Source of the DNA: Pyropia yezoensis
Taxonomy: Eukaryota > Rhodophyta > Bangiophyceae > Bangiales > Bangiaceae
NCBI GenBank assembly: GCA_009829735.1
Contig: CM020619.1
Location: 27,368,063 to 27,432,062, forward strand
Direction: 5' to 3'
DNA length: 64,000 nt
Shown: positions 15,958-39,697 of the stretch, piece after piece
Numbering within the stretch: position 1 is the first letter of the stretch
How the letters are laid out: every line of letters begins with the position of its first letter
The notes under the pieces: model-generated
Seen by the model: the letters and a program-made list of their open reading frames with translations, nothing else
The model's database searches: none
Told to the model about the DNA's origin: nothing
Position numbers and translations under genes: made by a program

Positions 15958-18075
15958 CTACTCCCGGCGCGGACGCTGAGCCGCGGGAGTGTCCTCCGGC
16001 GTTGCCTCCGCGGTACGACGGGAACCGGAGGAAGACGGGATGACGTAGTGCGGTGGACGCGGCGCATCCCGGTATGACGCCATCGGAGTAGTACCAGTAG
16101 TTGCCGGTGGCTCCCGCTCATCCAGATATGTCCGTCGGCGCCGCTGGAAGCCCGTGAAGGTCTCTGACCACTGCTGGGCCAGGCCATGCCGCGTCAAAGT
16201 CGCCAGAAGTTCGCCAACCACCGGGTTGTTCGACATCTGGCCGCTGTCCGCGCAAGCAAAAACCCGGTCGACCACGTCGTTCAAGACGCTGGCGTAAGTA
16301 CCCAGCACCAGAGAGGACCCGACGCCTTCAACCTGCACCGGAAGACGACCCAGCTGGTCTTCAATCATGCCGACGTCGTACTGGTCGCATGTTGGACCAC
16401 CTTGGTTCAGGTACCAGTCAGGCACCCGGAAGCGGGTGAGGCGCAGAGTCGGCGCCGGAATCTCGAACCGGCCCGAGGATGACACTACCGGACGGTCCAC
16501 AACGGCCCCCGAGACCGGAGTACCCAACTCCAGCGGAGGCACAGCGCCGCCGGCGTTGGAAGAAGGCGTCCGGGGTAGAGCGGCCGGAGTAATCGGCGAC
16601 CGCACGGCCACTCCCAGACTCGCCGCAGACAAGCGCGGTGCCGGAGGAGCTTGAAGTACTGGCACAGCCGGAACAGGGCGAGGACGTGCCGGTGACGGTT
16701 CAGGCGAGGCGACCGGGGCGACAGGGGCAACCGGAGGAAGTGGAGCCGCCGCAGACGCCCGACCGACCGCCGCGGCCCATCCCGACTCCTGCACCGGCGG
16801 TCCAACTGGCAGAAGATCAAGGGCGGCCGGAGCAGGAAAGCTACCTAGCTGCGGCCACGCCGGAAGCGGCGTCGCCAGCTGCACCTTGGCCGGAGAAGAC
16901 TGGTAGACCACCTGCGCCCAACCGAAGCCATCCCGACGCGGGCGGTTCTGGTCGGCAATCGCGTTCAAGAAGTTCCGGTCATGCACCGGCACCAGACGCC
17001 GGAAGTCGATCATCGCCTGGAAGAGCTCCTTGTACTCCTCGTCCTGGCTGCACAGGAAGTCGACGGTTAACTTGTCAACAATCCAGACCATCAGGAGGTC
17101 AGGGAGAAACCAAAGCCGGTTGGACACCAAGACCTCATGAAGCCAGTGGTTGGCCGCCAAGACTGTCATCTCGGACGTGTACATCATGTACGGGATTGAG
17201 TGGAAGAAGCCCTTGATCGACGCCTGAGTCAAGGCGTCCAAGAAGTACCAGGTGCAAGGGATGCTGGAAGGAGCAAACCCGACCGGGATCTCGACTTCCT
17301 GCTGCTGCGGGATGACCTTGGGGTAGTATGCCGCCCGGTTAGCCTTGTCCAGCTTCCAGAACTCCTGGTGGTTGCAGCTTACAAGGAAGTCACGCTGACG
17401 CCCGCGTCGCTCACCCTGCTCCCGTGCCGGCGACAACTTGGAGTATTTCCGGGTCAAGAAAGGCGGCTCCAGAGCGACCATGCTCGGACGGGGGTCGCAG
17501 TTCAAGCTTCCCGACCCCTTGAGCGCCTCGTCCCAGACCTTGAGCGCCCGGTGGACGTACCCTTCCTCCTCCGGCCACCGGAGAACGGACGCGGACACGC
17601 GACGCTCGGTCAAGGGTAGATCCAGTACCAGCGCGAAGGGGAGATCCTCCAGACGAGCAGCCCAAGAGGAACCCGAGAAGCTCTGGGAGCGGTCTTGTGC
17701 CAGGCGCATCTGGTCCGCCGTATGAAGACGTGCCTTGTCCATCTCGGTCAAGACCCCGCGCTGGAGTTCCTTGCGCCAGAGGTCCATGCAATCCTGCTGG
17801 CACTGGGCCGCCCCGGCGTTACCGACCACCGTGGAGTAACGCCGGGCCGCCAGAGGGTCCTGCCCAAGAAGCATCTCCGGGAGACCCTCCGGGGGGGCCT
17901 CGACCGGGTGCATCGCGGAAGCCGGGGGAACTCGATCCGTCCCCGCCGTGGCGACCGGCGCCGGCACCGACATCCGAGGAACCGGAGGCAGGAGAGGGGC
18001 ACGACGACCCGAGTTCTCCTCCGCAACACTCGCCGCCGGAACCACGGGCCCAGCTTGGATCTCGGAACTGGACAT
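15958..18075 (-). CDS. Element 1 antisense ORF (unknown protein, 705 aa)
   Basis: Encoded opposite to gag-pol, between the pol stop and the 3' LTR, and convergent with pol (145 bases between stops). The ATG is at 18075, 187 bases from the LTR. No family is recognised. Residues 1-75 are Pro/Ala-rich. A globular region of about 300 residues includes AAYYPKVIPQQQEVEIPVGF, NHWLHEVLVSNRLWFLPDLL and FGWAQVVYQ. A Pro/Ala linker follows, then a second folded-looking part with RFRVPDWYLNQGG. The middle region aligns in order with the antisense proteins of elements 2 and 3. There is no competing sense ORF in this interval. It is not an envelope protein by appearance: no signal peptide or membrane helix is obvious. 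Function unknown. Confidence 0.75.
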   Translation of the reverse strand: MSSSEIQAGPVVPAASVAEENSGRRAPLLPPVPRMSVPAPVATAGTDRVPPASAMHPVEAPPEGLPEMLLGQDPLAARRYSTVVGNAGAAQCQQDCMDLWRKELQRGVLTEMDKARLHTADQMRLAQDRSQSFSGSSWAARLEDLPFALVLDLPLTERRVSASVLRWPEEEGYVHRALKVWDEALKGSGSLNCDPRPSMVALEPPFLTRKYSKLSPAREQGERRGRQRDFLVSCNHQEFWKLDKANRAAYYPKVIPQQQEVEIPVGFAPSSIPCTWYFLDALTQASIKGFFHSIPYMMYTSEMTVLAANHWLHEVLVSNRLWFLPDLLMVWIVDKLTVDFLCSQDEEYKELFQAMIDFRRLVPVHDRNFLNAIADQNRPRRDGFGWAQVVYQSSPAKVQLATPLPAWPQLGSFPAPAALDLLPVGPPVQESGWAAAVGRASAAAPLPPVAPVAPVASPEPSPARPRPVPAVPVLQAPPAPRLSAASLGVAVRSPITPAALPRTPSSNAGGAVPPLELGTPVSGAVVDRPVVSSSGRFEIPAPTLRLTRFRVPDWYLNQGGPTCDQYDVGMIEDQLGRLPVQVEGVGSSLVLGTYASVLNDVVDRVFACADSGQMSNNPVVGELLATLTRHGLAQQWSETFTGFQRRRRTYLDEREPPATTGTTPMASYRDAPRPPHYVIPSSSGSRRTAEATPEDTPAAQRPRRE

Positions 18076-18248
18076 ACCGTCCAGACTCCGGGGAACGAGA
18101 GGGCCAAGGTGAAGGAGCGGAGGGGGGGGGGGCAGAATCGGGGCAGGTGATCGTGACCGGGGTGAAGACGCTCGACCTCGGCACCGGTGTGGACGTGCTC
18201 GAGGCTGTGCACGGTGGCACCTGGTTCGGCCCGAGGACGTGCCGGACT

Positions 18249-18261
18249 AGGGAGGGAGCTA
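18249..18261 (+). other. Polypurine tract of element 1
   Basis: AGGGAGGGAG followed by CTA, directly before the 3' LTR; expected primer site for plus-strand DNA synthesis. Confidence 0.6.
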
Positions 18262-18835
18262 TGTAGCATCCCTGGCCCCGACTTGGCGCCGACCCGGGAC
18301 TGCAACCAGAGGGCACCAGGTGCCAGAACACGCCCGCCGTGTGGCGATGGTTGGCGGCCGTGGCCCGTGCCCGGCACTGGGATGCGGTGGACTACGCTAT
18401 CCACACGCGAGAGAGGGATTTCTGATGTGTTTTTGCATATTTGTGAGGGACTTGATTTGAGAGAATTTGAGTGTGAGATTAGTGAGTGGGAATAGAATCA
18501 GTAGTGATAGTGGCCCCCGACCTGACGAGGTTAGACTCGGGTCGGGGCCACTCGGGGTTATGGGGGGGGGCTACCGGGCCAACGTGCCGGGGTTCCCCCA
18601 GATGCACGTTAAGAGGGACAGCGAGGCGCCCTCGGCCCGCGCCCTCAGGGAGAAAGACAACTGCGCGTTTGCTTTCCTCTTCCCCGTGTGCACTACCGTG
18701 CGTATCTGTTTGCTCTGCGAGCAGGCACGTGAGGCAACAGGCATACCATTCTCGTAGTTCCCCTTTCTGCGTTACCTGTCCCTTTCCCCCGAGGGATATT
18801 GACACGTGTCTGAGAGGATCGAGTTTTATACCACA
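18262..18835 (+). repeat. 3' LTR of element 1
   Basis: 574 bases, matching the 5' LTR. On the minus strand GTATAAAAC (18831-18823) is a TATA-like box about 755 bases upstream of the antisense ORF start, a candidate antisense promoter. Confidence 0.97.
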
Positions 18836-18840
18836 CTGAG

Positions 18841-18981
18841 CTTCTCCAGCGATGGGATCCTGTTCAGTCCCAGGAGCAGCTTGAGTATCCTCACTGTCTC
18901 GGTATCCTGGTGACCGCGGCCATTGCCGAAAAAGAAGAGATTCGGATGATGTACGGCGAGCAGCACGAGCACTGGGGGTGA
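18841..18981 (+). pseudogene. SET-domain protein gene, 3' part after element 1
   Basis: Continues the frame interrupted at 9180. The 46 codons include TAAIAEKEEIRMMYGEQHEHW before a TGA, matching the end of SET domains, where a hydrophobic/acidic segment and a YG motif close the fold. The target duplication CTGAG is in frame across the junction. Confidence 0.6.
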
Positions 18982-21651: not shown

Positions 21652-22120
21652 TGTGGCAAAAACGACTTACACACGCGGCACCCAAGCTGGGGCGGTGTAC
21701 AAGGGCTGCCTCCCGTGTCGGGGGAACCGGAAGAAGTGCAAGTCGCACACACTCTATCCCTGTTGTGGGGCAATCCCCCCACTGACAAACAAGAGGATGG
21801 TGTGTGGTCCAACAGTTTCTTGGTCGGGACGGGGACGCAGGGCCAAGCCCCGCTGTCCCTCCCCTTATCCCCCCAGGGTCCCCTCAGAATCTCGCCACTC
21901 AGAATCTCCCACCCCAGCACCTGCCCACCGGGCCACACGAAAATTCAAGACGATAAATGCAGAAAACCCTCAAATCCAAGTTGGATTTACTACTAAGCTA
22001 ACTATCCCAAACTTAGAGAATATGGACCCAAATGCAGGGGGAGGAACGGATCAGGCTAGTGGCCTGCCGCCCCTTGCATGGCACGTGTTGCCCCCCTACC
22101 TGGGGGTCAATACTGCCACA
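21652..22120 (-). repeat. 3' LTR of element 2 (left end)
   Basis: 469 bases; pairs with 30560-31028. The six differences (about 1.3 percent) indicate an older insertion than element 1. Confidence 0.96.
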
Positions 22121-22133
22121 CTCCCCTCTCCTC
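22121..22133 (-). other. Polypurine tract of element 2
   Basis: Reads GAGGAGAGGGGAG on the minus strand, directly adjacent to the 3' LTR. Confidence 0.7.
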
Positions 22134-22458
22134 AGTTCCGACCGACCCGGTCGGCCCTGTGAGGGGGTGCGTAAACGCACGTCTCGGCGTTGGGGGCGCA
22201 ACTTGCTGTCCCCCCTTGAGTACGTAACGCGGATGTGGAGGCGGTCACGTTGACCGCCCCTCTCCTCAAGCTTGCCCACTTGGCAGCTTGCTATCCCCGG
22301 TTCTCACTTCACCACCACCACCACCTCCCCTTCACCTTCCACGGGGCCGCCCCACGCTGGGGAGGCCACCCGTCTACCCACGATCCGAGTCTTCCTCAAC
22401 TTGAGGCGGGTCTCGTGCCGCCGTAGCCAGGGCGTCTCTCCCCAGCTTGGGGAGAGCC

Positions 22459-24402
22459 ATGGCGACCCCGGGGGTGGAGACGGACTCCCTCGATGAACGT
22501 ATGGAGGACACCTCCTACGGTGCAGCGCCCGCCGGGACTTCCGGCGGGGGCTCCGCGATCGCTCCGGGGGATGGGACTCCCTCGTCACCCGGCATTGGGT
22601 TGACGGCGGGATCTCCCCCGGAGGCGGGACAAGTTGTCCCGCGTGAGGCCTTGGGGCGGTGGTTTTACCCCGCTTGGCCTCTGTATGAGGAGGGGTTGAC
22701 TGTTCTTCGCTGTGGCCGACTTGGCGCAGCGATGGGTCAGGTATGGGACCGCCTACGGGAGAAGTATCCCCGCAGGGTCGGGTTCCCTGCCGGCTTCAGG
22801 ACGGACCAGTTTGCCTTCCTGGACGACGAGGAGGTCGAAGACATACAGCGGGCCAAGGCCATGGTGGACCGCGGGGGAACTATCCCGGGTCCCGGCGACT
22901 TGCCGACCTTTACTTGGGACGCGGTGGCAACTTGCCCCCCGTACCTTCACGAGGCCGATCCGCACACTCATCACTTTGATGTGCGGATGGAGAAGGACTT
23001 CCGGCGAGGTCCCTACTTGGTGACCTCGGCTCAACTTGAGTTCCCTCAGCAGTCTGCTGCCAATAAGTAGCAGTACTATCCGAAGAAGCCCGAGTGGTGG
23101 CCTCAAGTTGAGGTCCCCTACGGGTTCCCGGCGTTGTTGCCACGGTTGCTTGACCACTTCGGCACCGTCATGTTGACGGCTGGCCCTGATCACCTGGTGT
23201 GGGCTATGTTGGCCACCCAGTGGCTCATCGAGGTCATGTCGACCTGGGTGTCTTGTGTTCAGCGGCGGGGGATGCTCTGGCATCTCCCCCTCCGGCTTAT
23301 CCAAGGATCGGAACAGCTCACCCCTCAGCTAGTTGCTGAGGGGTGCTTATCAGGACAACCCACTCTACTTGAGGAGATGCTCCGCCTCCACAAGTTTATC
23401 GAGTGGGAGAGCATTGAGCACAAGTTGCGCCGCCCCACTCGTGGGCCCAAGGACGATGGCGCACTTCGCCAGTTCGTATGGGTCGCTCGTGAACTTCGCG
23501 ACGGCCGGGTGGTACTACGAGAGGGGTTGGGCATCGGGGACTACCCGTATGCCCCGGGGGTGGATCGCCACACTGTGCCACCCCCGGACAAGGCCATAGT
23601 TCTGGCCGAGCCCTCATATGATGACCTTACGACTCAACCCACTGCGGGGGCCCCAAGTCGGGGTCGCAGTTACACCCGGGTCCCGCCACCTCGGCGTGCC
23701 CCTCCGCTTCCTCCTGTCCCCTACCAGCCTCACGGGGACATCCCGATTAGCGTGGCCGTTGAGTCGTCAACCCCGGTGTCCCCCAACTTGGGGGCCACCC
23801 TCCTGACGGTATACCCCAAGTTGGTGTTACCGCCCACGCCTCTAACCTCAGAGATGGTGATCACCACGTTGGTGCGCACCATTTCCTGGTTGGCCGCGTC
23901 GACCGCAACCCTTCAAAGTTCCGACACTCCTCAACTTGAGGAGCGCTTTCGTACTGCAGTGGCGACCGCGAGTTGCGAGTCGGTGGCGGAGTTCATGACG
24001 GCCGAGTTGGCTCGCATCGGGGCTATTATGCCCCAGCCAGCCCCACTTGGGCGTGGCAAACGTCGCGCGAGCCGGGAATACTCGCCTCATCGCCGTCGTC
24101 GCCGACACTCGCGGCGCTCTCCCTCCGTGTCGGAAGACGAGTTGTCTTGCTCCGAGTCGGAGTCATCCACCCCGTCCGAGACCGAGTCGGTCCGGCGTCT
24201 GCGTCGCCAACTTGCGCGCAAGACTAAACAGAAGGGCAGCCGCGATCGTCGCCACTTGCGCGACCGTGAGGGGCGCGGCGGTTCCGACTTGGAGCCGCCG
24301 GCCCCGCCGACTGGTGGGGAGCGTTATCGCCGTGGGTCTCGCCGCTCGCCTCTAAGTGAGGGCGAGGGCCGTGGGGTTGGAGAGTCTAGCATGCATGCCT
24401 AG
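22459..24402 (+). pseudogene. Element 2 antisense ORF, one in-frame TAG
   Basis: Reading frame of 648 codons opposite to gag-pol, starting with GCCATGG at 22459, about 340 bases from the LTR, and stopping 111 bases from the pol stop. One TAG (23068-23070) interrupts it just before QYYPK, after which the frame continues unbroken. The conserved domain lies at about 23070-23480: a QVEVPYGF segment, HFGTVML, QRRGMLWHLP, LVAEGCLSGQ and MLRLHKFIEW. The C-terminus is Arg/Ser/Glu-rich (RRRRRHSRRSPS) like nuclear or RNA-binding proteins. It aligns with the element 3 and element 1 antisense proteins and closely with the fragment at 33866-35085. Function unknown. Confidence 0.75.
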
Positions 24403-24513
24403 TTGGCAGCTGCCTTTGTTGTGAGAGTGTGAGGGCTAGGGCTGTAGTTAAAAGCCACTCTGCGTACCACTTCGACTTGAAGCACTCTCTTGGCACTGTT
24501 ACTCAGCCTTCCC

Positions 24514-27500
24514 TCACGTTGAGGGAGGGCTGTTAGGGTCTATCTCATTCCGGGCACAGTAAGCCCGGACCTTCTCAGCGGGACGGTCCTCCACATACTC
24601 CCACGTATCATCCTTGGCTTTGTAGCTGAACCAACGGACCCTCAACATGAGGCGGTCAGTGTCCTCATCCCACCCGTGGTCGATGAACTTATCGAACACG
24701 TACTCCTGCGGGCCCTGTTTGACCGCAGGCAGCGAGGGGAGGCGCCACGCTTCCAACGCACGCGCCCAAGCTGGGTCGCCTGCAGGCGGTGGTGCAACTT
24801 TGACCACGTCCTGTCCGTTCACTGTGCGGACCCCATCGTCACTTTCGATGGTGAAGCGCCGCCCATCAGTACGAAGGACCTGGTACGGCCCCTTCGTCTG
24901 GAATACCAACTTACCCCCAGTTGGGGTGTGTGAGTGTACCAGCACCCAGTCACCCTTCTCGGGGACATGCTTAGCATTGCGCACCTTTTTGTCAAAGGTA
25001 CGCTTGTAGCGCTTTTGTGCTTTGTCCATCTCAGCCCTGACTTTAGGGATGAGGTTTTAAAGCCTAGCAGCGAACTCCGCCTTACTCTCAGCAGGAGTAG
25101 GCGTACTGCCACCATCCTCCCTATTTGGGAGCGGCCGCCGCACGGCAATAGACCGCACGCGACGGGGGGTCACAAAAGCGAGGGGTACTTCCCCGGTAGA
25201 TGAATGAACCTGCGAATTGTAGGCAGTGGTAAGAATAGAAATGTATTGGTCCCACGTTTTCACGTGCTCACTCACGTAGTGGCGCAGCTGCCGAACAATA
25301 GTTTTGTTGAAGCGCTCCTCCTGCCCATTAGTTTGTGGGTGGTAGGGGGTGGCATAGTTTGCCGTAAACCCCAACATATCCAGCACCCCCTGAAACAGTA
25401 CGGACGCAAATTGCGGTCCATTGTCCGATAGTGTACTATCTGGGATGCCATACGCGGCAACCCAGTGATCTAGGAAGGCTGACACGACCGACATGGCCGT
25501 GATCTCTGCCAGTGAGATCGCTCGCGTAAGTTTCGTGAAGCGGTCACAGATGACCAGGAGGTACTGGTTGCCCTCCTCGGTCACTGGCAGTGGCCCAAGG
25601 ATGTCCATCGCCAACGCGGCAAAGGGCTCCTTGGCCGGGAACAATAGCATAGCCGTAGTAGGCCGCCGTTCCATCAGACGGTTCTGTGCACAACTTGTGC
25701 AGGCAGCCACCCAACTGTAGATGTCCAACACCATGGACGGCCAGTAGTACCTGGTCCTCAGGGTCTGGTACAGTTTACTAGACCCCAGGTGTCCACCCGT
25801 GGGAGCCTTATGCTCCCTCTCAAGGATACTGTTCTTGAGGGATACGGGGACGACAAGTTGTTCGGTCCCCTGGAATACCCCCCTCCTCATGAGGAGGCCA
25901 TCGTCTCCCAGAAAGAACCGCGTCTCCGCCACTGTATCCAGTGTATCCCTCTGCGACTTGCAGAAGGGATCCTCGGCCTGGGCCTTCACCCCCTCGTCCA
26001 GGGACAGGGGCAAGTACTTCTTGTTTCCTTGCGCCTCAGGGTTCAACACCTGACCCGAGCGCGTGACTACCCCCACGATGGGGATGTCCTCATCGACTGG
26101 GTTAGTGTCCAGCCCCTCGGTAGATACCCGAGAGAGGCCGTCGGCAAGGGCATGTTGCCTGCCCGGTCGGTACTCAATATCAAAGTTGAAAGGTGCCAGT
26201 CGCACCCTCCACCAGTTGAGACGAGCGTTCGTACAGTCCGTCTTAAAGATGAACTGCAACGCGCGGTGGTCACAGCGGATGAGGAACTGCTCACCCTCTA
26301 GGTAGTGACGAAGTGACGTCACCGCCCACACCACTGCGAGTCCTTCCAACTCGGTGACTCCGTAGTTCTTCTCGGCCGAGTTCAGCCCCTTGCTGAAGTA
26401 TCCCACCGGCAAGTACTCCTTGTCCGGCTGCTGCTGAAGCAACACACAACCAAGTTGGTCGTAGCTAGCGTCCACATCCAGGATGTAGTGGCCTCCCAAC
26501 CTGGGAATAGCCAAGATGGGGGGCTTCAGCAGAAGTTCCCGAAGAGTCTCAAAGGATTCCTGCTCCACCCGACTTGGGGGAGGCAGGTTCTTCGGTAGCG
26601 CTGAGCTAACTAGCTCATTCAACGGCTTCGCCACCTTGGCGAAACCCTTGGTGAAACGTCGGTACACGTTACACATCCCGAGGAAGCTCCTCATCTGGGT
26701 CTGGGTCCGGGGGTACTGGGCCTTGCGGATGGCCCTCAAGTTCTTCTCGTTGACACTGAGACGCCCCGGACGGACAACATGTCCCAAGTATTCCACCTCT
26801 TGAGTGAAGAGGTGGCACTTACTCGCCTTCAGTGACACACCGGCGTCAGCAAGTAGCTTGAACACCTGGCCAAGATGGCCAATGTGTTCCTCCGGACTTC
26901 GGAAGAACACAATGATATCGTCTAGGTACACGAGACAGATCTGCCACCGTACTCCGGCCAGAATCATGTCCATAGCGCGCTGGAAAGTTGCCGGCGCGTT
27001 ACACAGTCCAAACGGTAGTCGCTTGCATTGGTAGGTACCACAGTGACAGGTACAGGTAGTTTTATGCCTGTCCTCCGGGGCAATGGGAATTTGCCAGTAC
27101 CCCGCGTTACAGTCCAGGGTAGAGAACACGTTCGCCTCCCCCAGAGAGTCCAGACAGTCGTCCATCCTAGGTAGGGGATAACTGTCCTTCACCGTGCTCT
27201 CGTTGAGCTTACGGTAGTCGATACAGAACCGGGGGGTCCCATCAACTTTGGGGACGATAACCACCGGACTCGCCCACTCGGCGTTACTGGCCTCGATCAC
27301 ATCGAGGGCCTCCATGCGAGCAACTTGCTCCTTAACGAGGGCCCTTGAACGGGGTCCTTCCCTATACGGTTGTTGGCGTATAGGGGGTGCACCGGGCTTC
27401 AACTCGATCCGGTGTTGGGTAGCTCTCATGAGTCCCAATCGACCATCCCACTACTTGTGATATTGGTCCAAGAGGCGTTCAAATTGAACCCTCAACCTGG

Positions 27501-28506
27501 GTGGAACACCCTCCATGTTCACATGGGGCCGAGGAGAGGCGGCCGACTTGGCTTGGTGCTTCTCCTTTCCGGAATTCGGGTCGCTACTCGCGCCCGCATT
27601 GAGGGTGACCGCTAATACCGGTCCCTCATGTTGGTCGATATAGCCGAACTTGGCTCCCGACTTGAAGTACTTGGGCGACGAGCTCAGGTTCATAACCTGG
27701 ATCCTCCACGGGACTCCGGCTTTGGAGTCCATCGTGCCAAGGGCAACATGCACTTGGTGCTTGCGAGCAAGGCGGGGGTGAGGGTGCAACAACCCGTTCC
27801 CCGAATAATCAGTTACAACGTCAACGTGCGCCACCGAGTTGGGGGGCAACGTGACTATACGGGCTAAACGCAGGGTAGCAGTAAACCCTTCTCTCACAGA
27901 GAAAACAGGCTTCGACTGTGAGACTGTCACAGGAGCCACAGACTTTCCCTTACCAAGGATGAGGATGGTTTCCCCATTCATCAACTTGACCCAGTACTCA
28001 GGGCCACAAATCAAAGGCACTTAAGTTACAACATAAGGGGTACTCGGAAGCAGGGGTACCGATATATTCTCAACTACTCCATAGGTCACGTCGACCTCGT
28101 TGGTCGCCAACCTAGTTGGTAGGGTCACGGCACCAACGATGGGAAGTACCCCACCATTGATATCGATCAGATGGTCAGCTTTAGACCTCCAGCGCTGGAG
28201 CTTCGTCTCCTTTGGTAATAGCGACTTGCGTATCAAGGAGGCTCCTGACCCGGTATCAAGTACGATACGGGCACAACAGGCGCGGCCGGGGGCAAGTTGC
28301 ACCCGTCCAGCCACCTGGAAGTTCTCACCCGTCAGCACCGCGATGACCCGACGTGGGTTTACGTTCTTGGGGAGTCCTACCCGAGGTGGGCGGACTCCCT
28401 TAGGTCGCCGCAGCATCCAGCACGGTTGGTTCGTCCTCTTGACCCACTTGGCCGAGGCTGCCGTTGTGAGCTTCGGACGACCAGCTCCAACGGTCATTCG
28501 TTTCCC
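24514..28506 (-). pseudogene. pol: Element 2 Pol with three in-frame stops
   Basis: One reading frame from the frameshift site to 24514, broken by TAA (28023-28021), TAG (27453-27451) and TAA (25059-25057). Protease active site VLDTGSGASLI lies in the first part; reverse transcriptase has YLDDIIVF; RNase H has LDVDASYDQLGC; integrase has MDILGPLPV, SDNGPQF and NGQEERFNK; a chromodomain-like end reads FDKFIDHGWD...LRVRWFSYKAKDDTWE. Without the three stops it would match elements 1 and 3 in length and order. The pattern fits point nonsense mutations after insertion; suppressor read-through is possible but unsupported. Confidence 0.9.
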
Positions 28507-30440
28507 GCCGACTTGGCGTCCGAATCTGAGGACGAAGGGGAAGACGACGAGTCCGAGGACGACGTGTCCGCCCCCTCCGCCGAGGGTGTGGCGACCGCCA
28601 CCACCGGTCGAAACCCACCCTCGCGGCGTGAACGTACTTCGTTCGTAGCCGACTTCTTACTCGCATTCCTAACAAGTTGTTGGATGCGTTTACTCAACTT
28701 GGGGCACTCATATGCCCAGTGTCCATCGGAGCTGCAGTTCCAACACCGATTGTCTGTTCCCGGAGGAGTCTTCCCGACTGGGGAAGACGAAGAGATACCC
28801 TGGGAAGTTCCTACGGCAACTATCACCCTTTCCTTGCGGATTCGGCGTGCCTCTCTCAACTCTCTGGCCTGGCGCGCCTCCTCCCGTTCCTTCGCCAACT
28901 CGGCCTGACGCTCCTGGCGTTGTTCCTCCCGCAACTTGCGGTAGGCCTCGCCTCTGCGGTAGGCGAACCTAGCTAACTCGGCCAGGGTCGCCCGGGCAGT
29001 GTTATGCTCCCGGGTCTCCATCCGGACTGACCAATGGAGTCCCTCCACAAACCGACTCTTCACCACAGCATGTGGATGAAGAAACCCACAAAGATTGTTG
29101 AGCTTACGGACTCGCTCCGCAAAGGACAACTCGTCCTCCGCCTCTTCCTGATGGGCTTGCGTAAACTCCTCGACTTGAGAAGCCAACGCCGCTTCATCAA
29201 CCATGGCTCTCAACAACCAGTTGACGAGCTCCAAATAGGACGTCACCTCACCAGCGCCTCCACTTGAGGAGCTGGGCATGACGGACATAAGTTCTGTCCG
29301 CAGGTCGCCCTTCGTGAACTCCTGTAGCATATAGAAAGCCATGCCTTCACTTATGGCATTGTCGTCACAGGCTTTTGTGAAACGACGTAGAAACTCAAAG
29401 ACACGGAGGGGGAGAGTTCCATCCCACTTCGCTTTGTGCCCAAAAGAGTGAAGTGCATTCTTCTTAGCACGGCCCATGGCTCGGGCCTGGTCAGGACCGT
29501 ACGCCACCGACCTATTGTGGAGGGCGTAGGTCTCACAATCAAAGATCCTCTGGTAGACCGGGTTGGCTACCTGGATCTTGGGCAGCACCTCACGTTGAGG
29601 GAACAGCCGCTGTGGCACTGGGGCAAGTTCACCCTCAGTGCCGATAGTCTGGCGCGGCGCGCTTGGTGTAGCCGCCGGCCTTTCCGGGGGGAACTCCCCC
29701 ATGAAGGGCGTACGCCCCACCGAGTATGGTGTGGCTCCCTCGCTGGGAGTCACAAGTGTCGCCCCCTGCTCGGGGCGACCAGAGGTAGGCGTGAGGAGGG
29801 ATTCCCCCTGCGCCTGCGGGCTCGAAAGCCCCGATCCGGTCTGGACATTAAGGCCATCTGGCAAACTCGCCACAATCTGATTCAGAATTGTATTCGTCAT
29901 CGTGACCACCAGGTCCGGCAAAGTCTGCCGCAACACATTGGTCGCCTCCCGACGGACAGTTTCCGCGAGGAGTGGATTGTCGACTCCAGTTGAGGCTCGG
30001 TCCGCCTCCGGGAGTCCATCTGAGGGGTAACCACGTTCCTTAGGGGTCTCAACCGGGGGCATGGGCGCGAGCCCATCGCCGACCAACGGAGGTCCGCCGT
30101 CCTCCGAAAGCCTAGTTGGCGACGGCTCCAAGCCAAAGTTGGCTCCAACCCGAGTGGAACCCGCGGGGACAGTCATCACCCCTTGGGACGTTCCCGTTGA
30201 GTATACCACACGGTGGCCAGACTTCGGCCCACCCACATCAGAAGTGTCACCCGAGCGAACTCCCGACTGAGTCGGGGTGGCCTGTTGCCCGCCCGCACTT
30301 CCAGTCCTGCTGGCTTGAGGGACCTCCAGTCCCTCTGCGACCCCAGGTAAACCCACCTGTGTCTCACCAGTATTCAAAGGCACTGAAGTACGTGCGTCAC
30401 CCGTGTACTCCCCGGACGACGGGGGGTCCGAACTAGCCAT
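28494..30440 (-). CDS. gag: Element 2 Gag
   Basis: 648 residues from the ATG at 30440. A long Gly/Pro/Thr-rich N-terminus precedes the capsid-like region (FLRRFTKACDDN..., SFAERVRKLNN). A Glu/Arg-rich helical stretch rich in REEARQ repeats follows, probably a coiled coil. A CCHC knuckle (CWNCSSDGHWAYEC) comes next, then a Ser/Asp-rich tail ending GNE-stop. GGGAAAC (28506-28500) precedes the last codon and the TGA stop overlaps the ATG of the -1 frame. The frame is intact, unlike pol. Confidence 0.9.
   Translation of the reverse strand: MASSDPPSSGEYTGDARTSVPLNTGETQVGLPGVAEGLEVPQASRTGSAGGQQATPTQSGVRSGDTSDVGGPKSGHRVVYSTGTSQGVMTVPAGSTRVGANFGLEPSPTRLSEDGGPPLVGDGLAPMPPVETPKERGYPSDGLPEADRASTGVDNPLLAETVRREATNVLRQTLPDLVVTMTNTILNQIVASLPDGLNVQTGSGLSSPQAQGESLLTPTSGRPEQGATLVTPSEGATPYSVGRTPFMGEFPPERPAATPSAPRQTIGTEGELAPVPQRLFPQREVLPKIQVANPVYQRIFDCETYALHNRSVAYGPDQARAMGRAKKNALHSFGHKAKWDGTLPLRVFEFLRRFTKACDDNAISEGMAFYMLQEFTKGDLRTELMSVMPSSSSGGAGEVTSYLELVNWLLRAMVDEAALASQVEEFTQAHQEEAEDELSFAERVRKLNNLCGFLHPHAVVKSRFVEGLHWSVRMETREHNTARATLAELARFAYRRGEAYRKLREEQRQERQAELAKEREEARQARELREARRIRKERVIVAVGTSQGISSSSPVGKTPPGTDNRCWNCSSDGHWAYECPKLSKRIQQLVRNASKKSATNEVRSRREGGFRPVVAVATPSAEGADTSSSDSSSSPSSSDSDAKSAGNE
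28500..28506 (-). promoter_or_regulatory. -1 ribosomal frameshift heptamer GGGAAAC (element 2)
   Basis: Gag frame GCG GGA AAC GAA TGA; the -1 frame continues GGG AAA CGA ATG ACC into the protease. Same geometry as element 1. Confidence 0.85.
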
Positions 30441-30540
30441 GTTGGCTGACGATCCGTATGACACGGTCCAAGTCCACCGTTCCTCTGAGACAGAGGGCCC
30501 CCTACACCCGGGTGCACCCGGAGGTAAAGTTTACCTCTGT

Positions 30541-30557
30541 CCCCTGCTGCTCCACCA
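30541..30557 (-). other. Primer binding site of element 2
   Basis: Minus strand TGGTGGAGCAGCAGGGG, two bases from the 5' LTR, identical to that of element 1. Confidence 0.8.
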
Positions 30558-30559
30558 AA

Positions 30560-31028
30560 TGTGGCAAAAACCACTTACACACGCGGCACCCAAGTTGGGG
30601 CGGTGTACAAGGGCTGCCTCCCGTGTCGGGGGAACCGGAAGAAGTGCAAGTCGCACACACTCTGTCCCTGTTGTGGGGCAATCCCCCCACTGACAAACAA
30701 GAGGATGGTGTGTGGTCCAACAGTTTCTTGGTCGGGACGGGGACGCAGGGCCAAGCCCCGCTTTCCCTCCCCTTATCCCCCCAGGGTCCCCTCAGAATCT
30801 CGCCACTCAGAATCTCCCACCCCAGCACCTGCCCACCGGGCCACACGAAAATTCAAGACGATAAATGCAGAAAACCCTCAAATCCAAGTTGGATTTACTA
30901 CTAAGCTAACTATCCCAAACTTAGAGAATATGGACCCAAATGCAGGGGGAGGAACGGATCAGGCTAGTGGCCTGCCGCCCCTTGCATGGCACGTGTTGCC
31001 CCCCTACCTGGGGGCCAAAACTGCCACA
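30560..31028 (-). repeat. 5' LTR of element 2 (right end)
   Basis: 469 bases, TGTGGC at its left and GCCACA at its right in plus orientation. Confidence 0.96.
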
Positions 31029-31033
31029 GTGAC

Positions 31034-32905: not shown

Positions 32906-33120
32906 AGCGGCCGCTCCCAAGTAGGGAGGCCGGTGGCGGGACACTTACTTGTACTGAAAGTAAAATGGAGCTCGCTGCCAGGCTCGAGAAGCTCATCCCT
33001 AAAGTCAGGGCTGGGATGGATGAAGCGCTGAAGCGCTATAAACGTACTTTTGACAAGAAGGTACGTAACGTCAAGTAAGTCCCCAAGCAGGGAGACTGGG
33101 TGCTGGCACATTCACATACC

Positions 33121-33532
33121 CTGACTGGGGGGTAAGCTGGTGTCTTATACGAAGGGACCATACCATGTCTTTCGTACTGATGGGTGGCGGTTCACCATCG
33201 AAAGTGACGACGGGATCCGTACAGTAAGCGGAGAGGACGTGGTGAAAATTGCACCACCTCCTCCAGGCGACCCAGCTTGGGCGCGTGCGCTGAAAGTGTG
33301 GCGCTTGCCATCGCTGCCTGCGAGCCCTGACTGGGGCGTAAGCTGGTGTCTTATACGAAGGGACCATACCATGTCTTTCGTACTGATGGGTGGCGGCTCA
33401 CCATCGAAAGTGACGATGGGATCCGTACAGTAAGCGGAAAGAACGTGGTGAAAGTGGCACCACCTCCTCCAGGCGACCCAGCTTGGGCGCGTGCGCTGAA
33501 AGTGTGGCGCTTGCCATCGCTGCCTGCGAGCA
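33121..33532 (+). repeat. 206-base tandem duplication within the pol fragment
   Basis: Units 33121-33326 and 33327-33532 are nearly identical and both begin CTGACTGGGG. They duplicate the segment encoding the region between integrase and chromodomain. Confidence 0.85.
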
Positions 33533-33865
33533 ACAATGGCCCGCAGGAGTTCGCGGTTGATAAGTTCATCGACCACGGCTGGGATGAGGATAGTGACGCC
33601 TCATGTTGAGGGTGCGTTGGTTTGGCTATCGTGCCAAGGACTATACTTGGGAGTATATAGAGGAACTCCCGGTTGAGAAGTTCCGGGCTTACTGCGCCCG
33701 GAACGATATCGGCCCTGACCATCCTCCCTCAACGTGAGGGAAGGTCCAGTGGCTGTGCCAAGAGAGTGCTTCAATTCGAAGTGGTACGCAGGGTGGCTTT
33801 TACTACAGCCGTAAACCTCTCACTCTCTCAACAAAAGCACCTGCCAACAAGGCACGCATGCTAGA

Positions 33866-35085
33866 CTACCCACCCTCACGTGGAGGGGAACGGCGAGACC
33901 CACGTCGAAACCGATCCCCGCTAGTCAGCGGAGCCGGCGGTTCCAAGTCGGAACCGTCATGACCAACACAGTCGCGAATACGACGACAGCTGCGGTTAGT
34001 AGTCTGCTTGGTATTGCGCGCAAGTTGGCGACGCAGACGCCGGACCGACTCGGTCTCGGACGGGGTGGATGACTCCGACTCGGAGCAAGACAACTCGTCT
34101 TCCGACACGGAGGGAGAACGCCGCGAGTGGCGGCGACGAAGACGACGAGGCGAGTACGCTCGGCTCGCCCGACGCTTGCCGCGCCCAAATGGGGCCGACA
34201 ACGACATGATGGAGCCGATACGAGCCAATTCGGCCGTCATATACTCTGCAACCGACTCGCAACTAGCAGTCGAGACGACAGTGCGATCGCGCTCCTCAAG
34301 TTGGATAGCCTCCGACGTTTGGAGGGTGGCAGCCGACGCGGCCATCCACGACAGGGTGCGCACGAACGTGGTGATTACCATCTCAGAAGTTAAGGGCGCG
34401 GTCGGTAACACCAACGTGGGGTAGACCGTGAGTAGAGTAGCTTCCAAGTTGGGAGACACAGGGGTGGACGACTCCACCGCGACGCCGACCGGGATGTCCC
34501 CGTGCGGCTGGAACGGGAGAGGAGGAAGAAGAGGGGCTCGCTGACTAGGCGGAGCCCGAGGGTAGCCGTGACCCCGAGTTGGGGCCGCCAAAGCGCCTTG
34601 CGCCAGGTACTCTTGGTGCGTAGCTACTCCCACCACCGACATCTTGTCTGGAGGCGGCGCAGTGTGGCGCTTCACCCCCGGGGCATACGGGTAGTCCCCG
34701 ATGCCCAACCCCTCCTTGAGTACCACCCGGCCGTCGTGAAGTTTACGACCGACCCAGACAAAGTGGCGTACTGAGCCTTCCTCCTTGGACCCGTGGGAGG
34801 ATCGGCGCAACTTAGGCTCGATGCTCCCCCACTCGATGAGTTCGTGGAGTCTCAGCATCTTCTCAAGTAGAGAGAGCTGGCCCGCCGAGCACCCCTCAGC
34901 AACTAGCCGAAGGGTAAGCTGCTCCAAACCTTGGATCAGGCTGGGTGACAAGTGCCACAACATCTCGCGTCGCTGTACGCTCGCTACCCAGGTCGACATA
35001 ACCTTGAGGAGCCACAGTGTTGCCAGCATGGCGAACACTAAGTGGTCCGGGCTAGCCGTCAACAAGATGGAGCCAAAGTGCACCC
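33866..35085 (-). pseudogene. Antisense ORF fragment of the truncated element
   Basis: About 400 open codons on the minus strand, aligned along their length with the element 2 antisense protein (HFGSILL for HFGTVML, QRREMLWHLS for QRRGMLWHLP, and the same Arg/Ser tail). The N-terminal half is missing. The frame has stayed open while pol in the same fragment is wrecked. Confidence 0.7.
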
Positions 35086-35100
35086 ACCCCCCGCGACGCG

Positions 35101-36300: not shown

Positions 36301-36663
36301 TGTAGCACAATAGGGATCCGTCGCGCGTCCACTCTCAGGGAACACTCACCAAGGGGGATCGGCACCAACGTCACCGGGAGGCCACGGTTGCTGTCCTTGG
36401 AGCGCAAGCCACGGGACCAAGATGGGAGCCCAAATGGGAGGGGTTTGTTGTTCTACCTTGGCCGGCGGTGGATTCGCCACCGGCCCCCTCGTTATAAACC
36501 CTCGGAGACACTACTAACTACCCTCCACCCCAAGATGCAAGTCCCTCTGGTCATACGTAACTTATAGATACCGTGACCAGCTCGGACTCTCAAATTGGAA
36601 GTTAAGGATTAGAAGTAGCCCCCCTAATATTAGGGTCACAATACGGACAACCATATTGCTACA
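36301..36663 (-). repeat. Element 3 LTR A (left end)
   Basis: 363 bases, TGTAGC...GCTACA in plus orientation. One visible difference from LTR C (CCACGG against CCAAGG). TTATAAAC on the plus strand at 36492-36499 is nearly symmetric and could serve either direction. Confidence 0.95.
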
Positions 36664-36676
36664 TATCCCCCCCTTA
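36664..36676 (-). other. Polypurine tract of element 3
   Basis: Minus strand AAGGGGGGGATA immediately before the 3' LTR. Confidence 0.65.
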
Positions 36677-37249
36677 GATTCGGCCCGTCCTCGGGTCGAG
36701 TTGCATTCGGGTTACCGAATGTAAGTGGGTCGCGTGACTGTTTACCCGTCGGGTGGGGCTTTGCGCCCCGTCGCGACAGACACCCCTTTTCGAGGTTGCC
36801 GAGGGGGGTGCCTCCCTTTGCGTGGTACACACACACGATCCGTTTTCCGGACCGTTAAATTCCCGATGCGGGTTGCTGTTCGCGCCCCCCCTTTCCGAGG
36901 GGTGGTGCAAGCGGATCCGCCACCAGGTGCCTGGGGGTAGGGGGGCCCCTCTCGTGTGGACGATTGAGTGGGGGGCGGGGGCTGCCCGCGTTGTGTGGGG
37001 GCGGTTGGGGGTGACCCCCCGTACTTACCCCGTGTGTGGGTGTGGCCCCGTCCCGCCCAGGTGCCTGGGTGGAGCGCGGTCGTAGCCCCGTGGGGCGCGG
37101 GTCGACCCGCGTGCCTGCGGCGCTTCTCGTGGCCGTTTGTGGTCATAAGCGCGGGTGTCCGCGCTTCCCTGGCTCGTCCCGGTTATCCCACCGTACCGGG
37201 TTGTAGCCGTCGACGGCTTGTGGGCGCGGGGGATTCCGCACCCGTTATC

Positions 37250-39697
37250 ATGTCCTATCCCCAGGTGCTTGAAGAGGAGGAAGACCTCCTGATCGGGGAG
37301 GAGATGGAGGACGACGCGCCTGTCGGTCCCGACGCCGCGCGTTACGGGGTGAGCTCGTCTGACGACGACGGGCCTGCGGTGTCCGTCCGTCTGTCGGCCG
37401 GAGGACTGTCGTCCGTGTGCAGCGGCACGACGGTGCCGTCGGCCGGAGGTCAACCCGGCGGTCAACCGCGCGTGGCGGCTTCTACCCCCTCTCTGCCGGC
37501 TGCCCGGATGGGGCCTGGTGCCGGTGCCGGCTCACCGCAGGTACCTCAAGATGGTCCGCCCTGCGGCGGAGGTCGCGACCCGCAGCCGACTCCGGCTGGT
37601 CAAGGTGGTCCGGGTGTCCGGGCGGTGACTCCTCGAGGCGGTCCCGACGTTGACGCGGGTGGTGGTGGCGGTGCGACACCCGGTGCGGCGGGTCAAGACG
37701 GTGCGGGTGTCCGCATGGCCGGGGCTCCGGCTCCGGAGGCTGTCCAAGTGCCTTCCCCTTCCGAGGCGGGGGCTACGCCGACGGGTGGTGCCGGCGCCGG
37801 TGCCGTACCTGCGGTGCCGCGGGCGTCGAGCGGTCAAGACGCTCCTTCTCCCATGGCGGTTGACACCGGGAGTTACTCCGGGCGGGCGCCCGCCCTTCTT
37901 CTTCCTCCTCGGCCTCGTCCATCTCCGACGTCGGCCCCTCTGCCGGTGGTGCGTCCCCCGGCGCCCCCGATTCTTCCTCGTCCTGCCCGGGTTGCCCCGT
38001 TGGGTGGCGGCGTCGCCGTGGCGGCGGGTCAACCCGCCATGTCGGTGTCCGACTTGGTGGCTCGGGTTCGAGGCCTCACGGTGCAAGAGTCGATGGAGTC
38101 CGATGGGCGTATGCGGGTGGACTTCCACCTGGTGCATCCCCGTGGAGAATCCTCCCGGCGCGTCAAGGTGGACCCGTGCTGGGAGCGGGAGTTGGTGCGG
38201 CTGGTCAACCAGCCGAACGCGGTCCGGGTGGAACACCATTGGATCCTGAGTCAGCCGGACGACCGGCATGCGCAGCTCTGGCGCACCCGGGTGATACGGG
38301 GTGAGGTCTACCTCGACCCCAACTTCGGGGTCTGCGACTTGATTGCCCCCGCGTTGCCGCGGGAGATTGACTACCCGGCTAGTGCTCGGGGGATTGCGGC
38401 GGCGGCGGAGCCGGTTGCGTTTGGGGAGACGGTGAGCCGTACCGGTCGGTATCCCGACTTTGACTACTACCCGGGGGTACCCCCGTATCTGTCGTTGACG
38501 GCTCCCTACCCGCCCATGGCGGGGTTGAAGTCGGCGTCGAGTTGGCGACGTAACCATGGTGTCATGGCGGATGCGTTCCGCACGGATATAACGTGTGCGT
38601 TGCAGACCGGCAACGGTCGTGCTCCGGTATACACTCCCGTGCGCCCGCCGCTATGGCAGGAGGGGTGGGAACCCGCCCCTGCTTTCCGGTTTGACACCGG
38701 CTCCTGTCTTCGCTACTTCGGGAGTGTGTTGGCCTCGCGACCGGTCCACCCGTTGCAGGGTACCTTCACCCTTGAGGTTACCCTCGGGCAGGCTTCATCC
38801 TTCTTGCTGTCCGTCCGCCGGCAGGGTCGTCTGATTCATCTTCCGACGGGTGTCCGTCGGCACATCGCGCAGTTGGGCGTGGATCTGATAGCTGCCAAGA
38901 CCGGGTTGGCCCAGGAGTTCGAAGCCCTGCTGGCTGTTCACGATGCCGTGAACTGGGCTGGGGTGTTGGCCCTTCCCCCGTACCGGGACCCGCAGGCTGG
39001 GGCTTCCCCCTTGCCTCGTCACTCGTTGCGTGTCCGGCGTACTCAGCCGGGTGAGCCTAGTTGCCATGGGTGGGCGTCCACCGAGGCCGTTCCTGACCTG
39101 GGTATTCCCATGGTTATCCATGACCCTCTTCAGGTCCTTGCTCCGTGGTTCGGTAACCCGATGCCGGCGGCGGTTGGCCGTCGTCCCCGAGAGTGGGGCT
39201 CTGTGGGTGGGGAGCGTGAGGTGTCCCGTCGTCGGGCGGAGTACCGCCGTGGTTACGGTGGAGCCCCTTCGGTAGGGTCCTACCGGGCCTCGTATCAGGT
39301 GCCACCGGCTCCGGTGGTAGCCGTGTCGGCTCCTGTGGCTCCTCTGGCTGCGCCAGTGTCACCTCCCGCCCCTGTCCTACATGACGGGGGTCCCTGTCTC
39401 TGGTATGAAGGCGTTGACGCCCTTGTTACCCGCGCAATGCGTGGGGGTCTCTCTGTTAGCTGGGGGGATATCCCCCCAGGTGCTGCGCTGGTTGGGTCAG
39501 CGCGTTGCTTTGGTGGCGTGCTGGACCGCCTCCAGAAAGATCTGGAGGACGTGGAGGCTGGCCGCAGCACCCTCGTCCAGCTATGCACCGAGGTAACTCG
39601 GGTGGTCGACCGTCGTGACGTTGCCGACCGGTGGAGCACGGAGGTCTACGCGCTTACGCGTGAGTGGCCTCCCTCGGGCAGTGGGTCTACCCACTGA
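37250..39697 (+). CDS. Element 3 antisense ORF (unknown protein, about 815 aa)
   Basis: Intact reading frame opposite to gag-pol. I choose the ATG at 37250 (MSYPQVLEEEEDLL); the frame is open from 36968 without an ATG. It starts about 590 bases from the LTR and ends 479 bases from the pol stop. An acidic N-terminus is followed by about 250 Pro/Gly/Ala residues. A folded-looking part includes VDFHLVHPRGESSRRVKV, FDYYPGVPPYL and the domain shared with the other families: RYFGSVLAS, VRRQGRLIHLPTG, GLAQEFEALL and HDAVNWAGVLALP (about 38712-38980). The end contains a helical segment (LQKDLEDVEAGRSTLVQLC). No catalytic motif or membrane helix is seen. Function unknown. Confidence 0.78.
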   Translation: MSYPQVLEEEEDLLIGEEMEDDAPVGPDAARYGVSSSDDDGPAVSVRLSAGGLSSVCSGTTVPSAGGQPGGQPRVAASTPSLPAARMGPGAGAGSPQVPQDGPPCGGGRDPQPTPAGQGGPGVRAVTPRGGPDVDAGGGGGATPGAAGQDGAGVRMAGAPAPEAVQVPSPSEAGATPTGGAGAGAVPAVPRASSGQDAPSPMAVDTGSYSGRAPALLLPPRPRPSPTSAPLPVVRPPAPPILPRPARVAPLGGGVAVAAGQPAMSVSDLVARVRGLTVQESMESDGRMRVDFHLVHPRGESSRRVKVDPCWERELVRLVNQPNAVRVEHHWILSQPDDRHAQLWRTRVIRGEVYLDPNFGVCDLIAPALPREIDYPASARGIAAAAEPVAFGETVSRTGRYPDFDYYPGVPPYLSLTAPYPPMAGLKSASSWRRNHGVMADAFRTDITCALQTGNGRAPVYTPVRPPLWQEGWEPAPAFRFDTGSCLRYFGSVLASRPVHPLQGTFTLEVTLGQASSFLLSVRRQGRLIHLPTGVRRHIAQLGVDLIAAKTGLAQEFEALLAVHDAVNWAGVLALPPYRDPQAGASPLPRHSLRVRRTQPGEPSCHGWASTEAVPDLGIPMVIHDPLQVLAPWFGNPMPAAVGRRPREWGSVGGEREVSRRRAEYRRGYGGAPSVGSYRASYQVPPAPVVAVSAPVAPLAAPVSPPAPVLHDGGPCLWYEGVDALVTRAMRGGLSVSWGDIPPGAALVGSARCFGGVLDRLQKDLEDVEAGRSTLVQLCTEVTRVVDRRDVADRWSTEVYALTREWPPSGSGSTH

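What the first reader, a model, noticed from the sequence alone, without database searches (positions are those of the whole stretch)
15958..39697. Three Ty3/gypsy families each carry a homologous antisense ORF between pol and the 3' LTR
Seen: 15958-18075 (-), 22459-24402 (+) and 37250-39697 (+) each lie on the strand opposite to gag-pol, converge on the pol stop, start 190-590 bases from the 3' LTR, and have no competing sense ORF. A fourth copy survives in the fragment at 33866-35085. They share an ordered domain: AAYYPK..VEIPVGF (element 1) with QYYPK..VEVPYGF (element 2); HFGTVML (2) with YFGSVLA (3); QRRGMLWHLP (2), RRQGRLIHLP (3), VSNRLWFLP (1); then MLRLHKFIEW (2) and LLAVHDAVNW (3). 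Known: some plant LTR elements carry extra antisense ORFs of unknown role. Inference: an old, retained protein of this chromovirus lineage, perhaps a regulator of transcription, silencing or targeting.
Basis: partly seen in the sequence, partly recalled or inferred. Interest (0 to 1): 0.9.

Follow-up and report, generated by a model that had tools for sequence, protein, structure and literature searches.

The report
Antisense third gene in algal retrotransposons
Three families of jumping genes in what is very probably the nori seaweed genome each carry, besides the usual genes, a third gene written on the opposite strand; its protein is related across the families, is kept by selection where that could be measured, and matches no protein in the libraries searched, so it is probably a little-studied helper of the element.

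Summary
Three Ty3/gypsy elements carry an antisense ORF (aORF) between pol and the 3' LTR. The proteins share a central domain of about 130-190 residues: families 1-2 and 2-3 exceed all 3000 shuffles; families 1-3 are linked only through 2. Selection is measured in families 2 and 3: element 2 against the remnant at 33866-35083 gives 403 codons without an indel and dN/dS 0.28 (0.21-0.37), while the other five frames carry 7-18 stops. For family 1 only intactness was seen. In the host genome (size fits Pyropia yezoensis), best-scoring places without stops are 63 of 63 (family 1), 78 of 95 (family 2, last 443 codons) and 53 of 55 (family 3). Family 3 proteins also occur in P. vietnamensis. Corrections: element 2's ORF has a stop; element 3's second half is probably an assembly duplicate beside a 500-base gap. 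Pfam and NCBIfam (all families) and PDB sequences (families 2, 3) give no significant relative; plant TRP28, which occupies the same slot, is not matched. Most likely an accessory protein from the element's own antisense transcript, perhaps nuclear; the function is inferred. Architecture known from plants, protein family apparently undescribed: a new variant of a known kind.

The parts
9181..9754 (+). Element 1, 5' LTR (TG..CA); target duplication CTGAG at 9176-9180 and 18836-18840
   Evidence: 574 of 574 identical to 18262-18835; flanks
9964..11724 (+). Element 1 gag
   Evidence: ORF; 28% identity to the gags of elements 2 and 3, E 2e-39 and 1e-21
11853..15812 (+). Element 1 pol (protease, RT, RNase H, integrase, weak chromodomain)
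   Evidence: Pfam
15958..18075 (-). Element 1 antisense ORF, 705 aa (P0001); part shared with element 2 is residues 200-337, about 17065-17478
   Evidence: 63 of 63 scored genome places without stop, one of them starting at residue 2
18262..18835 (+). Element 1, 3' LTR
21652..22120 (-). Element 2, 3' LTR (element on the minus strand); target duplication GTGAC on both outer sides
   Evidence: 98.7% to 30560-31028
22459..24402 (+). Element 2 antisense ORF, 647 codons with one in-frame stop at 23068-23070; part shared with element 3 is residues 136-319, about 22864-23415; basic RS-rich tail
   Evidence: 78 of 95 scored places of the last 443 codons lack stops
24514..25029 (-). Element 2 pol C-terminal piece, weak Chromo match
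25057..27438 (-). Element 2 pol, main piece (frame interrupted)
   Evidence: Pfam RT, RNase H, integrase
28494..30464 (-). Element 2 gag with zinc knuckle
30560..31028 (-). Element 2, 5' LTR
33866..35083 (-). Fragment 4: remnant of a diverged relative of the family 2 antisense ORF, 405 codons open
   Evidence: 72% aa identity to element 2, no indel in 403 codons, dN/dS 0.28; the other 102 of 103 scored genome places are 73-77% identical
36301..36663 (-). Element 3, 3' LTR; target duplication GCAAG on both outer sides
   Evidence: 362 of 363 identical to 55817-56179
37250..39697 (+). Element 3 antisense ORF, 815 aa (P0002); part shared with element 2 is residues 389-572, about 38414-38965
   Evidence: 53 of 55 scored genome places without stop; protein relatives in P. 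vietnamensis
40177..43131 (-). Element 3 pol (first representation), convergent with the antisense ORF
   Evidence: Pfam
46752..55983 (-). Partial LTR (46752-46918), 500-base gap (46919-47418) and second representation of element 3 (47419-55983, with gag 53408-55597); probable unmerged contig overlap, not a second insertion
   Evidence: 99.5% identity to 38360-46918; gap; broken aORF frame; common target duplication
55817..56179 (-). Element 3, 5' LTR

Best explanation
A third gene of a lineage of Bangiales (red algal) Ty3/gypsy retrotransposons, probably chromodomain-bearing. Steps shown: an open reading frame antisense to gag-pol, with a conserved central domain, lies convergent to pol just inside the 3' LTR in all three families; in families 2 and 3 it is under purifying selection on its protein. 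Steps inferred: an ancestor of the three families already carried it; it is transcribed from its own promoter in or near the 3' LTR, hence independently of gag-pol, and yields an accessory protein. My preferred role is a nuclear factor that binds the element's DNA or RNA and tunes or protects its expression, or assists integration. Confidence by step: selected protein-coding gene 0.95 (families 2 and 3; 0.85 for family 1); one homologous family in all three 0.9; independent antisense transcript 0.7; nuclear or nucleic-acid-binding role 0.4.
For: Open frames beyond shuffles for elements 1 and 3. dN 0.166, dS 0.593, ratio 0.28 (bootstrap 0.21-0.37) between element 2 and fragment 4; other five frames 7-18 stops and ratio 0.42-1.83. 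Within-family pN/pS: family 3, 30 copies, 0.31 overall, 0.17 in the domain, 0.23 in the C-terminus; family 2, 30 copies, last 443 codons, 0.26. Divergence of the family 3 aORF 0.65% against 2.0% and 1.6% in its flanking spacers. Start codon and stop kept in 30 of 30 family 3 loci. 3' LTR in front in 30 of 30 (family 3) and 27 of 30 (family 2) loci, pol tail convergent in 30 of 30 and 30 of 30. Starting from pol instead, 62 of 102 listed family 3 pol places have a listed convergent aORF domain and none has one in a wrong orientation within 3.5 kb; all 4 of the 102 that were fetched hold it. Homology; family 2 with the P. vietnamensis protein P0007 z 11.5-11.9, 0 of 3000. Second species. Basic RS-rich tail in family 2.
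Against: No RNA or protein evidence was available. Families 1 and 3 are not significantly similar directly: z 2.3-2.6, family 1 with P0007 z 2.1-2.2, 111 and 116 of 3000, hhalign P 0.036, and the family 3 profile does not recover P0001 at E up to 5. Selection was not measured in family 1. The N-terminal 330 residues of family 3 show none (0.91), and family 3 pol tails are more constrained (0.088, 28 of 30 loci) than its aORF; in family 2 the two are alike (0.239, 23 of 30). A clear basic cluster is present in family 2, one short one in family 1, none in family 3, so nuclear location is weakly based. Copies were ranked by protein score, which favours intact frames and low pN; fragment 4 and the 4 pol-chosen loci are free of that choice, and 2 of those 4 have frameshifts. 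Family 2 aORF is hardly less diverged than the short spacer next to pol (3.4% against 3.6%). In P. vietnamensis only proteins were seen, not their place beside pol.
Confidence: 0.5

Rival explanations
1. The antisense RNA, not the protein, matters: it pairs with gag-pol RNA, gives siRNAs and limits copy number; the open frame is incidental.
For: Convergent layout with only 111-479 bases between the two stops; the review PMC7264820 (first two of three parts read) raises this possibility for plant antisense ORFs.
Against: In families 2 and 3 selection acts on the amino acid sequence, with ratios of 0.17-0.31 and no indels over 403 codons. It could still be an additional effect.
Confidence: 0.08
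2. A very diverged member of the plant antisense family TRP28 (PF04195): the gene would be older than the split of red algae and plants, or have moved between them.
For: Same slot and strand; TRP28 is described as probably DNA-binding (PMC11963269, passages read). A loose version of its conserved spacing (N dropped, plus or minus 2) falls in the family 3 core, but also elsewhere in these proteins.
Against: No PF04195 match for the four aORF proteins or pieces scanned at E up to 10, though HMMER's filters drop most matches above 0.1; the spacing pattern with the N, strict or loose, occurs in none of the 10 proteins scanned. The genome search for PF04195 found nothing but its 14 controls were silent too, so it is uninformative. 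The Retand lineage is described as non-chromovirus.
Confidence: 0.1
3. A captured host gene or an inserted DNA transposon remnant.
For: Retroelements capture genes (PMC7264820).
Against: No significant Pfam or NCBIfam relative and none among solved-structure sequences for families 2 and 3; the three protein searches named no gene beyond three hypothetical proteins of P. vietnamensis (in one search only the 8000 candidates sharing most words were scored); same slot in three families; opposite strand to the RNA that is copied.
Confidence: 0.07
4. A structural or envelope-like protein, or a second gag.
For: Its divergence is like that of gag.
Against: No profile similarity to the gags (P 0.27-0.61, against 7e-14 for one gag pair used as control); no strong membrane segment (19-residue hydropathy at most 1.54); an antisense position is unusual for a structural gene.
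Confidence: 0.12
5. Open frames kept open only by high GC content and young copies.
For: GC 62%; LTR identities 98.7-100%; element 2's own broken frame is within its shuffles.
Against: Frames exceed shuffles for two of the three; codon-level selection over a divergence of 0.59 synonymous changes per site; cross-species conservation of family 3.
Confidence: 0.01

Closest known systems
Retand/Tat plant elements with antisense TRP28 ORF (PF04195); maize Grande gene23, rice RIRE2, Silene Retand (PMC11963269, PMC7264820)
   Same: Ty3/gypsy element; ORF antisense to gag-pol between pol and 3' LTR; kept in most copies; function unknown; Grande protein nuclear with its own antisense promoter (from the review)
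   Different: Plants, lineage described as non-chromovirus; TRP28 domain not detected here; here a red alga, probable chromodomain pol, and a different domain
Boty of Botrytis cinerea (named in PMC7264820)
   Different: Sequence not compared here
HTLV-1 HBZ (name recalled); retroviral antisense genes are mentioned in PMC7264820 and PMC11963269
   Same: Antisense gene with a 3' LTR promoter, regulator of sense transcription: a model of how it might work
   Different: No relation tested or claimed; host and virus class differ
VANC anti-silencing protein of Arabidopsis VANDAL transposons (recalled, no call)
   Same: A transposon gene product that acts on the transposon's own expression
   Different: DNA transposon, sense gene, unrelated as far as known; not tested

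Membership tests
Antisense additional ORF between pol and 3' LTR (aORF-3R architecture) | Position between pol and 3' LTR, antisense to gag-pol | tested here: met
Antisense additional ORF between pol and 3' LTR (aORF-3R architecture) | Present in most copies with conservation like gag-pol | tested here: met
   copy lists are capped and ranked by score; from pol, 62 of 102 is a lower bound
Antisense additional ORF between pol and 3' LTR (aORF-3R architecture) | Transcribed antisense | not testable with these tools
   no RNA data in reach
Retand TRP28 antisense protein | PF04195 domain | tested here: not met
   a remote relation is not excluded
Retand lineage | RT groups with Tat/Retand | not tested
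   no RT tree was built
Chromovirus | Chromodomain at the C-terminus of integrase | tested here: inconclusive
   PF00385 20.5 bits (element 1) and 17.3 bits (element 2), cut-off 25.1; none in element 3
Chromovirus | RT within the chromovirus clade | not tested
   no reference RT set in reach
Env-like protein | Sense orientation and transmembrane segments | tested here: not met
   antisense; maximum 19-residue hydropathy 1.54
One homologous protein family in the three elements | Significant similarity between all three | tested here: met
   1-2 and 2-3 significant, 1-3 not directly, only through 2
One homologous protein family in the three elements | Same fold | not testable with these tools
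   structure prediction switched off

The most novel reading that the evidence does not exclude
Red algal Ty3/gypsy elements, probably chromodomain-bearing, independently evolved a dedicated antisense regulatory gene that produces a self-acting nuclear factor (anti-silencing or targeting), so that plants, fungi and red algae converged on the same antisense slot with unrelated proteins. This would point to a general need for a gene expressed independently of gag-pol.
Probability: 0.3. Interest if true: 0.82.

Novelty: new variant of a known kind. Interest (0 to 1): 0.6.

Why it matters
LTR retrotransposons are thought to manage with gag and pol. A third gene found in three diverged families, under measured selection in two of them, and antisense at every place examined (60 of 60 loci; 62 of 62 pairs), suggests that this algal lineage uses something more. 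Together with the plant TRP28 genes it turns scattered reports into a testable question: why do apparently unrelated proteins settle in the same antisense slot? According to PMC7423979 (passages), LTR retrotransposons are the predominant repeats in P. yezoensis and intact LTR numbers track genome size in red algae, so a gene that helps them spread would bear on genome size too. The eight literature searches answered listed no description of it in red algae; the library lacks most subscription journals.

Tried and rejected
A second shared domain near the C-terminus, which I suspected by eye, did not stand: families 1-2 and 2-3 are at chance, families 1-3 z 2.7 with 40 of 2000 shuffles as high. 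Window-shuffled copies of a profile's own member score highly for composition reasons; with shuffles of the other families as control, the family 2 profile finds P0002 (E 1.2e-5) and P0001 (1.7e-4), best such shuffle 0.043, and the family 3 profile finds family 2 (2.8e-4), best such shuffle 0.16, but not P0001. The shuffle test reported is that of trimmed domains. The first dN/dS run over copies was wrong because the loci were not oriented; it is replaced. The first family 3 pol-tail value was out of register and is replaced. The first translations of fragment 4 used wrong frames; one search is right. I first took element 3's doublet and recurrent pol pairs for tandem elements; the gap, the shared target duplication and the variable pair distances (among all 102 pol places, 16 same-strand neighbours 5.1-14.6 kb apart and 1 opposite-strand) favour assembly duplicates for the window's pair, while the others were not inspected. 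Scans with the family 3 profile of viral contigs and genome contigs found no relative.
Full report
What is there. The window lies in a genome of 107,475,971 bases in 11 contigs. Its contigs C3 of 29,385,039 and C2 of 34,331,705 bases fit the 29.4 and 34.3 Mbp scaffolds reported for Pyropia yezoensis in PMC7423979 (passages read), and the only named protein relatives are hypothetical proteins of Pyropia vietnamensis.

Three Ty3/gypsy elements are complete enough to read. Element 1 (9181-18835, plus strand) has identical LTRs of 574 bases; element 2 (21652-31028, minus) has LTRs 98.7% identical; element 3 (36301-56179, minus) has LTRs differing at 1 of 363 bases. Each is flanked by a 5-base target duplication: CTGAG, GTGAC and GCAAG. 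Pol of each holds reverse transcriptase, RNase H and integrase domains. Weak chromodomain matches sit at the end of pol in elements 1 (20.5 bits) and 2 (17.3 bits), below Pfam's cut-off of 25.1; element 3 gave none.

Element 3 needs a correction. Bases 38360-46918 recur at 47419-55983 with 99.5% identity, and between them lies a run of 500 N at 46919-47418. In the second representation the antisense frame is broken several times, and one target duplication flanks the outer LTRs. The simplest reading is one insertion whose two overlapping contig ends were not merged. Among all 102 listed family 3 pol places, 16 neighbours lie on the same strand 5.1-14.6 kb apart and 1 on the opposite strand; these may have the same cause but were not inspected.

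The antisense ORFs. [quoted passage not shown] Element 2's frame is broken by a stop at 23068-23070, so its longest piece, 443 codons, is within its shuffles (maximum 451). The sense strand there has nothing longer than 239, 191 and 372 codons.

Selection. The cleanest test uses element 2 and fragment 4, which were not chosen by coding quality. They align over 403 codons without an indel, with dN 0.166, dS 0.593 and a ratio of 0.28 (bootstrap 0.21-0.37). The other five frames carry 7-18 stops in each sequence and give ratios of 0.42-1.83. Within families, for 30 loci each, pN/pS is 0.31 for the whole of family 3 (0.91 in the low-complexity N-terminal 330 residues, 0.17 in the central domain, 0.23 in the C-terminus) and 0.26 for the last 443 codons of family 2. 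The pol tails of the same loci give 0.088 (family 3, 28 of 30 usable) and 0.239 (family 2, 23 of 30 usable), so in family 3 pol is under stronger constraint than the aORF, in family 2 the two are alike. Family 3's ORF differs by 0.65% between copies, its two flanking spacers by 2.0% and 1.6%; family 2's by 3.4% against 12.4% on the LTR side (three of these loci lack a recognised LTR) and 3.6% on the pol side. Selection was not measured in family 1, whose copies could not be fetched.

These loci were the best protein matches, which biases towards intact, low-pN copies. Starting from pol instead, 62 of 102 listed family 3 pol places have a listed aORF domain on the opposite strand at 1749-2234 bases, and none has one in a wrong orientation within 3.5 kb. 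This is a lower bound, because both lists are capped. Of 4 places fetched out of the 102, all 4 hold the aORF, 2 of them among the 40 misses; 2 are open over the fetched part and 2 are frameshifted.

Abundance. Scored places without an internal stop: family 1, 63 of 63; family 2, last 443 codons, 78 of 95; family 3, 53 of 55 and, with the domain alone, 146 of 148. The lists are capped and hold the best matches. Among 30 family 2 loci cut, 16 have the full 647-codon frame without a stop, 6 have stops in it, and 8, element 2 included, have a broken N-terminal part. All 30 family 3 loci cut keep the start codon and the stop. The 3' LTR precedes the ORF in 30 of 30 family 3 and 27 of 30 family 2 loci, and the pol tail converges on it in 30 of 30 and 30 of 30; one family 3 locus also holds a second, more diverged pol piece on the aORF strand further upstream. 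Fragment 4 is a solitary, diverged copy: the other 102 of 103 scored places are 73-77% identical to it.

Homology. BLASTP gives E=2.6e-8 for families 1-2 over 138 residues and 2.4e-8 for families 2-3 over 189 residues. Local alignment of the domains exceeds all of 3000 shuffles in both cases, z 10-12 and 14-15; family 2 with the P. vietnamensis protein P0007 likewise, z 11.5-11.9. Families 1-3 reach only z 2.3 and 2.6, with 107 and 74 of 3000 shuffles as high, depending on the shuffle, and family 1 with P0007 z 2.1-2.2, with 111 and 116. Profile comparison gives P 4.7e-5 (2-3), 4.4e-5 (1-2) and 0.036 (1-3), the last in the same register. So the three form one family, with family 1 tied to family 3 through family 2. 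Pol identity among the elements is 47-55% and gag 25-28% over the alignable part, element 3's gag being read from its second representation; the aORF domain at 24-26% thus changes about as fast as gag. The simplest history is that an ancestor of all three already carried it; no tree was built. A C-terminal shared domain was looked for and not supported.

Relatives elsewhere. Whether the P. vietnamensis genes lie antisense beside pol was not seen. Pfam gives only DUF6214 at E 0.085 for P0002 and OrfB_IS605 at E 0.81 for fragment 4, both far below their cut-offs; NCBIfam gives nothing; solved-structure sequences give two chance-level hits for family 3 (E 0.062 and 0.24) and none for family 2; family 1 was not searched there. 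Scans with the family 3 profile of the viral and prokaryote contig collections found no relative.

How it may work. What is shown is a selected antisense gene (families 2 and 3) and its intact homologue in family 1. What follows is inference. A convergent gene just inside the 3' LTR can be expressed without the gag-pol promoter, as an accessory protein would need. Family 2 ends in a basic, RS-rich tail and family 1 has a short basic run; family 3 has neither. Plant relatives by architecture point to the nucleus: the review PMC7264820 (two of three parts read) reports a nuclear protein with its own antisense promoter for maize Grande, and PMC11963269 (passages) predicts DNA binding for TRP28. 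I therefore favour a nuclear accessory factor, at about 0.4. The RNA-only rival fails as sole explanation for families 2 and 3 because selection acts on amino acids.

Comparison with the known. The architecture is known from plants and from fungal Boty (PMC7264820). Membership in the TRP28 family is not supported: no PF04195 match at E up to 10, and none of the 10 proteins scanned fits its reported conserved spacing when the N is required. A loose version without the N does fall in the family 3 core, but also hits other stretches, so it is only a lead. The genome-wide search for PF04195 is uninformative because its controls were silent. [quoted passage not shown] these domains were not matched here. 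Eight literature searches listed no such gene in red algae; this does not cover most subscription journals. I rate it a new variant of a known kind.

Noticed in passing
46919-47418 and 47419-55983: A 500-base assembly gap inside element 3 with an 8.56-kb near-identical repeat around it; probably an unmerged contig overlap. Of 102 listed family 3 pol places, 16 same-strand neighbours lie 5.1-14.6 kb apart and may have the same cause.
   Followed up: partly
about 9755-9775, 30540-30559, 55797-55816: All three families share at least 17 bases of a primer-binding-site-like sequence beside the 5' LTR; it contains TGG, the complement of a tRNA CCA end (seen in the flanks). The tRNA was not identified.
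   Followed up: no
59694-61316 (-): A 540-aa ORF with Tc5 DNA-binding and DDE_1 endonuclease domains, a DNA transposon transposase.
   Followed up: no
56858-58021 (+): A 387-aa ORF with a DDE_Tnp_4 / Plant_tran domain, a second kind of DNA transposon transposase.
   Followed up: no
336-2780 (+): An uninterrupted 814-aa DEAD-box helicase ORF with very high GC at third positions (0.85), unlike the elements' ORFs (0.63-0.74).
   Followed up: no
33119-33530: Two tandem copies of a 206-base unit, 97% identical, inside the fragment-4 remnant.
   Followed up: no
37250-38239: The first 330 residues of the family 3 antisense protein are low-complexity and show no constraint (pN/pS 0.91), yet the frame stays open in all 30 top-scoring loci examined.
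   Followed up: partly
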